From NCBI GenBank assembly GCA_019671135.1, contig JAHRHY010000023.1, forward strand, positions 620,001 to 684,000: a DNA stretch of 64,000 nucleotides. The letters are read 5' to 3'. A model generated the notes under the pieces. It saw only the letters and a list, made by a program, of their open reading frames with translations, ran no database searches and had not been told where the DNA came from. This document shows positions 40,928-42,417 of the stretch, piece after piece (the stretch's first letter is position 1; every line of letters starts with the position of its first letter). This DNA is from Linnemannia hyalina (taxonomy: Eukaryota; Mortierellomycota; Mortierellomycetes; Mortierellales; Mortierellaceae). The position numbers and the translations under genes were made by a program.

Positions 40928-40934
40928 TATAAAA
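40928..40934 (+). promoter_or_regulatory. TATA box of the repeat precursor gene
   Basis: A canonical TATAAAA lies 137 bases upstream of the ATG at 41065, followed by a CT- then CA-rich leader. It is the clearest TATA box in the window, in keeping with a strongly expressed or regulated secreted product. Confidence 0.65.
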
Positions 40935-41064
40935 CCACCGCAAGAAAGCACCACTTCCCATTTCCTTTTTTTCTTCATCCTCATAGTCATCTTCTTCTTC
41001 ACTCCTCAACAACCCTCCACACCACTACAACCCAATCCAAACCCATCAAAAACTTCCATCAACA

Positions 41065-42417
41065 ATGAAGCTGTTCACCGCTGTCGCTTTGACGCTTTCC
41101 ATCTTTGCCGTCTCAACCACGGCTGCCCCCATTGCGTCGCCCGATGGTCTCGGTGATCTCCTTGGAGGTTTCGGAAACATCGTCCCCTTCGGTGACTTGA
41201 CAGGGGCCAACGCTGCTGACACCGAGTCCCTCGCCTCCCCTTCCCTCTCCAACCCTTCCGTTGAATCCACTACTGATGCTGCCAACCCCGCCGCTTTGGC
41301 CCGTCGCGGTCTCGGTGGTCTCCTTGGAGGTCTCGGAAACGCCCTTCCCCTCGGTGGTTCGAGAGGGGCCAACGCTGCTGATACTGAGTCTCTCGCCTCT
41401 CCTTCCCTCTCCAACCCTTCTGTTGAATCCACTACTGACGCTGCCAACCCCGCCGCTTTGGCCCGTCGCGGTCTCGGTGATCTCCTTGGAGGTTTCGGAA
41501 ACATCGTCCCCTTCGGTGACTTGACAGGGGCCAACGCTGCTGACACCGAGTCCCTTGCCTCTCCCTCCCTCTCCAACCCTTCTGTTGAATCCACTACTGA
41601 CGCTGCCAACCCCGCCGCTTTGGCCCGTCGCGGTCTCGGTGATCTCCTTGGAGGTCTCGGAAACGCCCTTCCCCTCGGTGGTTCGAGAGGGGCCAACGCT
41701 GCTGATACTGAGTCCCTCGCCTCCCCTTCCCTCTCCAACCCTTCCGTCGAATCCACTACTGATGCTGCCAACCCCGCCGCTTTGACCCGTCGCGGTCTCA
41801 TCCCCGTCGACATCAACGCGATCGTCGACGTGTTGGTCAAGGTCAACACCGAAGTAATCGTCAAGGCCATCACAGAACTCAAGGTCAACGTCTGCGCCGA
41901 CATCCGCTCCAAGCTCCACCTCGTCGCCCAGGGCGTCCTCACTACCGACACCGACGTCGTCATCCCCAAGATCTCCGCCAAGGTTGATTCCGAAACCCGC
42001 GTCATCGTCAACACAAAGGTCGACCTTGACACCAAGGCCATCGTCCTCTCAAACATTGGCGAGCACGCCCGTCATGTCATCCACAAGCACTGCCCCCACG
42101 AGGACGCCATCTGTATCTCCAAGGCTGCAGGCGATATTGTTGCCGATGTTGAGGCCCTTGTCAAGTTGGATATTGACCGTCTGTTCATTGCATTGAAGAC
42201 CAACTTGATGATCCATGTCCGTGCCAAGCTCCAAGTCTTGATCCGCGAGTTGGGTCTGAACTTGATTGTTGAGCAAATCCATCTCCAAGGTTTTGTTGAT
42301 GCCGTCGCCGATGTGGATGTCCACCTCAACCTCTGCGCCCACGTTATCGTCAAGGGTCTTCATGTCACCGTCGTTGCCACGGCCGTCGCCGCCATAAAGT
42401 CTCTTCTTGGGTTGTAA
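41065..42417 (+). CDS. Secreted repeat precursor with Arg-Arg (Kex2-type) processing sites
   Basis: A single exon of 450 codons. A signal peptide (MKLFTAVALTLSIFAVSTTA, cleavage near residue 20) directs it to secretion. Residues 28-243 are four 54-residue tandem repeats, each starting GLG(D/G)LLGG and ending AAL(A/T)RR. Types alternate A-B-A-B: A has GFGNIVPFGDLTGAN, B has GLGNALPLGGSRGAN. Every boundary is dibasic RR, the cut site of the Golgi protease Kex2, so the expected products are four peptides of about 52 residues after Arg trimming plus a C-terminal protein of about 207 residues. That last part is rich in Val, Ile, Asp and Lys in amphipathic stretches (VDVLVKVNTEVIVKAI) and has Cys in VNVCADI, HKHCPHEDAICI and NLCAHVIV. 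Its family is unknown to me. Analogous Kex2-processed repeat proteins exist in other fungi; activity here is unknown. Confidence 0.85.
   Translation: MKLFTAVALTLSIFAVSTTAAPIASPDGLGDLLGGFGNIVPFGDLTGANAADTESLASPSLSNPSVESTTDAANPAALARRGLGGLLGGLGNALPLGGSRGANAADTESLASPSLSNPSVESTTDAANPAALARRGLGDLLGGFGNIVPFGDLTGANAADTESLASPSLSNPSVESTTDAANPAALARRGLGDLLGGLGNALPLGGSRGANAADTESLASPSLSNPSVESTTDAANPAALTRRGLIPVDINAIVDVLVKVNTEVIVKAITELKVNVCADIRSKLHLVAQGVLTTDTDVVIPKISAKVDSETRVIVNTKVDLDTKAIVLSNIGEHARHVIHKHCPHEDAICISKAAGDIVADVEALVKLDIDRLFIALKTNLMIHVRAKLQVLIRELGLNLIVEQIHLQGFVDAVADVDVHLNLCAHVIVKGLHVTVVATAVAAIKSLLGL
41146..41793 (+). repeat. Four tandem 162-bp coding repeats, A-B-A-B order
   Basis: Unit starts at 41146, 41308, 41470 and 41632, exactly 162 bp apart. 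Units 1 and 3 encode identical peptides and differ only at silent sites; units 2 and 4 differ at two residues. The order implies duplication of a 324-bp A-B pair. Confidence 0.97.

What the first reader, a model, noticed from the sequence alone, without database searches (positions are those of the whole stretch)
41065..42417. Secreted precursor with four alternating Gly/Leu-rich peptides cut at Arg-Arg
The sequence shows a signal peptide, four exact 54-residue units in A-B-A-B order, each ending in RR, and a 207-residue C-terminal part. Kex2 cuts after dibasic pairs, so this gene could release two peptide types, A (GFGNIVPF core) and B (GLGNALPL core), in equal amounts. The heads GLGDLLGG are short, Gly/Leu-rich and hydrophobic, while the shared tail is Ser/Asn/Pro-rich. 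Units of one type are nearly identical in protein but differ at silent sites, suggesting selection on the peptide. Possible roles include surface-active, antimicrobial or signalling peptides. I know of no described family in Mortierellomycota with this layout.
Basis: partly seen in the sequence, partly recalled or inferred. Interest (0 to 1): 0.75.

Follow-up and report, generated by a model that had tools for sequence, protein, structure and literature searches.

The report
Secreted proprotein with multiplied propeptide array
A soil fungus carries a gene for a presumably secreted protein whose short leader-side piece has been copied four times, so that it could release four small peptides plus a conserved helical protein; close relatives carry one to five copies.

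Summary
In detail: ORF 41065-42417 (450 aa) has a hydrophobic N-terminus, four 54-aa units in A-B-A-B order, each ending in RR, and 207 further residues. The interpretation needs turning round. The gene belongs to a family of 99 proteins found here; all named members are from Mortierellales genera (recalled). Its constant part is the C-terminal domain, a predicted four-helix bundle (pLDDT 85.6) without a Pfam family or convincing PDB match. A [KR]R pair lies just before this domain in 63 of 87 testable members, Leu-Glu/Asp-x-Arg in 20. Outside P0001-P0014 the pro-segment is too short for two units. In the Linnemannia group it has been multiplied: 1 to 5 copies, differing between records of L. 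elongata and of L. gamsii. So this looks like a pro-domain-processed protein whose pro-segment grew into a KEP-like array. The peptides are acidic (-6, -3), against a cationic antimicrobial. Kexin-type genes exist. Cleavage, secretion and function are untested. KEPs are a described class; growth of one from an ordinary propeptide is the part worth testing.

The parts
40928..40933 (+). TATAAA, possible TATA box 137 nt before the ATG
   Evidence: pattern found by script; inference only
41065..41127 (+). presumed signal peptide (aa 1-21)
   Evidence: hydropathy peak around aa 8-12; similar N-termini in relatives; no SignalP run
41128..41145 (+). short spacer PIASPD (aa 22-27) before unit 1
41146..41307 (+). 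unit 1, type A (aa 28-81), RR at 41302-41307
41308..41469 (+). unit 2, type B (aa 82-135), RR at 41464-41469
41470..41631 (+). unit 3, type A (aa 136-189), RR at 41626-41631
41632..41793 (+). unit 4, type B (aa 190-243), RR at 41788-41793; a cut here would free the C-terminal domain
41794..42414 (+). conserved C-terminal domain, 207 aa, predicted four-helix bundle with two strands and four Cys
   Evidence: AlphaFold2 model pLDDT 85.6, pTM 0.80; family
42415..42417 (+). stop codon
42648..42653 (+). AATAAA, possible polyadenylation signal
   Evidence: inference only

Best explanation
This is a secreted pro-protein of a Mortierellomycota family. Shown from sequence: a hydrophobic leader, a pro-segment ending in a Kex2-type site, and a conserved ~205-aa domain predicted helical; in this species the pro-segment stands in four tandem copies with a 324-nt A-B period. 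Inferred: the leader directs the protein to the ER; a kexin cuts after each RR in the Golgi, a Kex1-type carboxypeptidase trims the RR, and the cell exports a 207-aa four-helix protein with two disulphides together with four acidic, flexible peptides of ~52 aa (the first a little longer). The domain is the main product. The Gly/Leu-rich head with its PLG-type core works as a pro-region that keeps the domain soluble or inactive until the cut. Copy number drifts by unequal crossing-over, and any role of the freed peptides is secondary.
For: A Kex2-type site just before the domain: [KR]R in 63 of 87 testable members, L-E/D-x-R in 20, KK in 2, neither in 2; 12 of 99 not testable. Seven single-unit near orthologues and un-repeated paralogues, one of them on contig C1 of the same genome. 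In the 73 testable members outside P0001-P0014 leader plus pro-segment is at most about 76 aa, too short for two units (anchor positions). The array carriers in the tree lie inside a starred 11-row clade (99/98) beside single-unit outgroups (midpoint root). Copy number 1 to 5, differing within L. elongata (1 and 2) and L. gamsii (1 and at least 2). Domain modelled with confidence; in a single-unit relative residues 1-80 have pLDDT 31-41, read as flexible. Identity among 7 single-unit orthologues: domain 0.86, head 0.80, tail 0.59. Two kexin-type genes. No dibasic pair inside the 207-aa domain.
Against: No cleavage, secretion or expression data. The head is nearly as conserved as the domain, which could also mean that the peptide is a product. 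The model of the single-unit proprotein gives no ordered pro-segment, so a chaperone or lid role has no support from it. The absence of dibasics in the domain is not significant (shuffles give none in 17.5%), and some distant relatives have dibasics inside the domain. Disulphide pairing is guessed from topology. Within the array the tail, not the head, is the constrained part.
Confidence: 0.5

Rival explanations
1. Peptide precursor in the first reader's sense: the freed A and B peptides are the main products, for example surface-active peptides on hyphae as Rep1-derived peptides are in Ustilago maydis, and the C-terminal domain is a carrier.
For: Meets the repeat counts of the KEP rules. A core of two hydrophobic residues, Pro, Leu/Phe/Val and Gly is kept in every full unit listed. 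The 22-aa head is hydrophobic on average (GRAVY 0.55 and 0.40). Tail variation in the array is 9 silent to 1 non-silent column (P about 1e-4 under neutrality).
Against: Relatives keep the domain with one unit, or with a short pro-segment lacking the head (P0033 and P0035-P0048). A and B heads differ by 9 non-silent to 2 silent columns, no sign of constraint to two fixed peptides. Net charge -6 and -3. Tail length varies between species, and P0011 lacks most of the tail.
Confidence: 0.22
2. Selectively neutral amplification: unequal crossing-over and gene conversion expand and shrink the pro-segment, and the extra peptides are by-products without a role.
For: Copy number varies between records of one species; P0003 carries a 15-aa stub unit and P0049 a small internal duplication. 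Silent tail columns show all four combinations across the units (e.g. unit columns 75 and 93), the mark of recombination or recurrent change. Each unit of P0001 is most like another unit of P0001.
Against: No double-length unit, so no lost RR, in P0001-P0004; tail constrained within the array. Some units resemble those of another species more than their neighbours (P0003 unit 2 and P0002 unit 4, 0.89), so not all copies are recent.
Confidence: 0.18
3. The RR sites are not cut and the array is an extended, flexible, possibly glycosylated Ser/Thr/Pro-rich stalk that holds the helical domain away from the wall.
For: Tails rich in Ser, Thr, Pro and Asn; the pro-region of a single-unit relative is modelled without order. 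Length-variable linkers are common (general knowledge).
Against: A Kex2-type site is kept just before the domain across much of the family, often with Leu at P4, which PMC8528282 gives as preferred; kexin-type genes present. No wall-anchoring motif was looked for.
Confidence: 0.1

Closest known systems
Kex2-processed repeat proteins, KEPs (Le Marquer et al. 2019, PMC6339444; Umemura 2020, PMC7329392)
   Same: Leader, four similar units separated by RR, repeats about half of the protein, unit under 100 aa
   Different: A conserved 207-aa domain follows the array; relatives of the same family have a single unit, so the array looks like a later addition to a domain protein
Kex2-processed pro-domain (K2PP) proteins, reviewed for plant-pathogen effectors in PMC8528282
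   Same: N-terminal pro-segment ending in a Kex2 motif, here with Leu at P4, then the mature domain
   Different: The pro-segment is in four tandem copies; no link to plant infection known or tested
Rep1 of Ustilago maydis (as described in PMC8528282 section 3)
   Same: A repeat protein cut by Kex2 into several peptides would be the same plan
   Different: Here acidic ~52-aa units and a conserved C-terminal domain; no sequence comparison with Rep1 was made
HsbA, hydrophobic surface binding protein (PF12296; its nature recalled, not fetched)
   Same: One family member, P0083, bears a UniRef name beginning 'Hydrophobic surface bind'
   Different: No member scanned matches PF12296

Membership tests
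KEP | signal peptide, no membrane helix | tested here: inconclusive
   Hydrophobic N-terminus by hydropathy and conservation; SignalP and TMHMM not available. A C-terminal 19-aa stretch averages 1.74 on the Kyte-Doolittle scale, so a membrane call is not excluded
KEP | at least four fragments on cutting at KR/RR and at least three similar fragments (PMC6339444); at least three repeats of 8 to 100 aa between Kex2 sites (PMC7329392) | tested here: met
   Four RR, five fragments, four units of 54 aa, A against B 85% identical. The surveys' own programs (FIMO step, seed scoring) were not run
KEP | repeats at least 15% of protein length | tested here: met
   216 of 450 aa, from coordinates
KEP | peptides actually released | not testable with these tools
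   needs mass spectrometry
K2PP protein | pro-segment with Kex2 motif before a mature domain | tested here: met
   domain model
K2PP protein | cut by Kex2, effector role in a plant | not testable with these tools
   no experiment
dikaritin/ustiloxin-type RiPP | Tyr in the core peptide | tested here: not met
   no Tyr in any of the four units (sequences)
dikaritin/ustiloxin-type RiPP | UstYa/DUF3328 gene nearby | tested here: inconclusive
   0 matches in the genome, but no control genome rang; none at E 0.001 among 10 neighbouring ORFs scanned
alpha-type pheromone precursor | STE13 XA/XP dipeptides after the Kex2 site, core 9-24 aa | tested here: not met
   each RR is followed by GL; units 54 aa
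HsbA PF12296 | match to the Pfam model | tested here: not met
   not among the matches of P0001 (E up to 10), of the 19 members of A1 (E up to 1) or of 10 distant members (E up to 10); genome search 0 at E 1 (whose controls rang in two genomes, none over the cut-off)

The most novel reading that the evidence does not exclude
The locus catches a multi-peptide precursor being born: the cut-off pro-segment of an ordinary secreted protein was tandemly multiplied in the Linnemannia group, the copies split into two head types, and the freed peptides have taken on a role of their own apart from the domain. Because one-, two-, three-, four- and five-copy states exist side by side, each step could be tested.
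Probability: 0.28. Interest if true: 0.65.

Novelty: new variant of a known kind. Interest (0 to 1): 0.42.

Why it matters
How Kex2-processed repeat proteins arise is open: the origin section of one survey and the Discussion of the other do not describe growth from a propeptide. A family in which a pro-segment goes from one copy to five among close relatives, on a constant domain, gives a direct case. It also points to a family of probable secreted helical proteins without a Pfam model in Mortierellomycota, common soil fungi (general knowledge).

Full report
What is there. The window lies at G000:C16:620001-684000 of a 51.5 Mb, 50-contig genome. Family member P0033, named KI688_005011 of Linnemannia hyalina, sits on a contig of 1,313,050 bases, the length of G000:C10, and its sequence is that of the C10 paralogue, so the genome is very likely L. 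hyalina (taxonomy; a 51.6 Mbp genome of strain SCG-10 is announced in PMC8444964, seen only as a search listing). The ORF 41065-42417 codes for 450 aa in one open frame. It has a hydrophobic leader, six residues, four 54-aa units and 207 further residues. The units repeat every 162 nt, and more strictly every 324 nt. Dibasic pairs occur only at the four unit ends. A 648-nt perfect-phase array in one open frame is not a chance match.

Units in detail. A units (1 and 3) are identical in protein; B units (2 and 4) differ at 2 of 54 residues. In the 22-residue head, 9 variable columns are non-silent and 2 silent; in the 32-residue tail, 1 is non-silent and 9 are silent (columns; Fisher P 0.0019). 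The tail pattern is unlikely under neutrality (P 0.0001 to 0.0003 for kappa 1 to 6); the head pattern is not (P about 0.3). Silent tail columns do not follow the A/B split throughout: columns 75 and 78 do, columns 93, 114 and 132 pair unit 1 with 4 and unit 2 with 3, as recombination or gene conversion between units would leave. The counts are few and the copies not independent.

Relatives. A search with the whole protein gave 22 relatives, a profile search 45 proteins including P0001, and a wider profile 63; together P0001-P0099. Each search scored only about 8,000 candidates, so absence elsewhere is not shown. Among near orthologues the number of full units is 4 (P0001), 5 (P0002, M. hygrophila), 3 plus a 15-aa stub (P0003), 2 (P0004, and P0007 whose model lacks the leader; both L. 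elongata) and 1 (P0005, P0006, P0008, P0010, P0011, P0013, P0014). P0009, P0012 and P0049 are incomplete; P0009 and P0049 are L. gamsii, and P0049 shows at least two units. L. elongata thus has one- and two-unit records, and L. gamsii one and at least two; that these are different strains is read from their locus tags. Draft assemblies and gene models can lose repeats, so low counts in some are less sure; P0006 lies on a 2.7 Mb contig. In M. hygrophila units 2-5 also alternate in the head core (NAVPLG, NVVPVG). Its Ala type resembles the B head of L. hyalina, so a shared origin of the alternation is not excluded, but the pair is not the same and P0003 does not show it.

Where the constant part lies. 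In the 73 testable members outside P0001-P0014 leader plus pro-segment is at most about 76 residues, from the anchor positions, so two 54-aa units do not fit. A [KR]R pair stands 82-113 residues before the CP...C anchor in 63 of 87 testable members; 20 have Leu-Glu/Asp-x-Arg, 2 KK, 2 neither; 2 partial records, 3 without an anchor and 7 with too short an N-terminus were set aside, of 99. One of the two 'neither', P0023, has KKR a little further on and a gap in its domain model. PMC8528282 (sections 3, 4 and 6 read) gives Leu or another aliphatic residue at P4 and a variable P2 as accepted Kex2 features; P4 in this family is often Leu but also Phe, Met and others. Seven single-unit orthologues share 0.86 identity in the domain, 0.80 in the head and 0.59 in the tail; over 14 wider members 0.65, 0.47 and 0.27, with 5 of 19 alignment rows left out. 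Gaps were not counted as differences (gap fractions 0.22-0.35 in head and tail). A PL core recurs in many pro-segments, but P0033 and P0035-P0048 have a shorter pro-segment without it. A tree of 23 domains, midpoint-rooted, puts the array carriers among its rows in an 11-row clade (99/98) that also holds single-unit members; the rows just outside it are single-unit or, for P0025, partial. Only 6 of 20 inner branches are starred. The simplest history is one pro-segment first, multiplied later. The same genome holds six other places matching the domain, and the A-B unit matches only this array.

The domain. The Pfam scans gave nothing better than E 0.0003, and no match over its cut-off where cut-offs were shown; no PDB chain matches the profile at E 10. 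AlphaFold2 on 24 sequences gives helices 7-36, 58-99, 105-158 and 174-204 and strands 37-45 and 162-170, pLDDT 85.6, pTM 0.80 for the best of five models (the others 70.9-83.2). Cys 100 and 107 are invariant and 34 and 181 nearly so in 24 sequences; by topology 100-107 would close the turn between helices 2 and 3, and 34-181 would tie helix 1 to helix 4, which is inference. Fold searches gave nothing beyond common helical arrangements. In the single-unit proprotein the pro-region has pLDDT 31-41.

Machinery. Two neighbouring loci on contig C47 carry Peptidase_S8 and P_proprotein domains, the kexin layout. UstYa was not found, but the control was silent.

How it most likely works. Entry to the ER by the leader, kexin cutting after each RR, and trimming are inferred from motifs and from the general biology in PMC8528282 and PMC9769878 (of the latter, passages only). 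I take the domain as the main product because it is the part kept across the family, and the unit as its multiplied pro-segment. PMC8528282 section 6 says that pro-domain roles in fungal effectors are unknown and predicts a chaperone role for some; my model gives no contact to support that here. The peptides may still matter: their heads are well kept, hydrophobic, and exported if cut. That reading stays at about one in four.

Comparison. By the repeat counts of the two KEP surveys (method sections read) it is a KEP; by architecture it is also a pro-domain-processed protein. The overlap, with the array grown from the pro-segment, is what I did not find described. Searches: and 43 for the genome; (Mortierellomycota, Kex2, peptide) found 0 papers, while one search listed three papers holding both 'mortierella' and 'kex2', not opened. 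The library is open-licence only and lacks most subscription journals. The supplements of the surveys could not be read, so whether this protein or a relative is in their tables is unknown. Of PMC6339444 I read sections 6, 18, 19 and 24 and passages; of PMC7329392 sections 9 and 13 and passages.

Mended: the statement about literature searches, the wording of the conserved head core, P4 residues, what the low pLDDT means, and several counts' scope.

Noticed in passing
L008 and L009 (G000:C47, about 1481719-1486611): Two kexin-type genes (Peptidase_S8 plus P_proprotein) lie about 4.7 kb apart, while PMC8528282 section 4 speaks of a single Kex2 copy in numerous fungi. A tandem kexin pair may deserve a look.
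   Followed up: partly
window 41125-41142 and relatives: Right after the presumed leader cut stand X-Pro and X-Ala dipeptides (AP, IA, SP), and similar AP/SP runs in relatives; these could be dipeptidyl-peptidase trimming sites on the first unit only.
   Followed up: no
P0002 (Mortierella hygrophila), units 2-5: A second alternating array with head cores NAVPLG and NVVPVG, suggesting dimer-wise growth there too.
   Followed up: partly
L005, L006, L007 (contigs C6 and C33): Distant paralogues of the domain; L005 and L006 have an upstream frame with a leader and seem to carry an intron, the first exon of L007 was not identified. The two on C6 lie about 4 kb apart on one strand.
   Followed up: partly
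window 41046-42071 and 41113-42048, minus strand: Long antisense open frames (341 and 311 aa, stop to stop) run across the array; probably a by-product of composition.
   Followed up: no
window 41835-41888: A weak 24-nt tandem repeat (2.2 copies, 73% matches) inside the stretch coding for helix 1 of the domain.
   Followed up: no
P0034 and P0023: Gene models in Mortierella sp. 14UC and AD094 with gaps in the domain, possibly mis-predicted or decaying copies.
   Followed up: no
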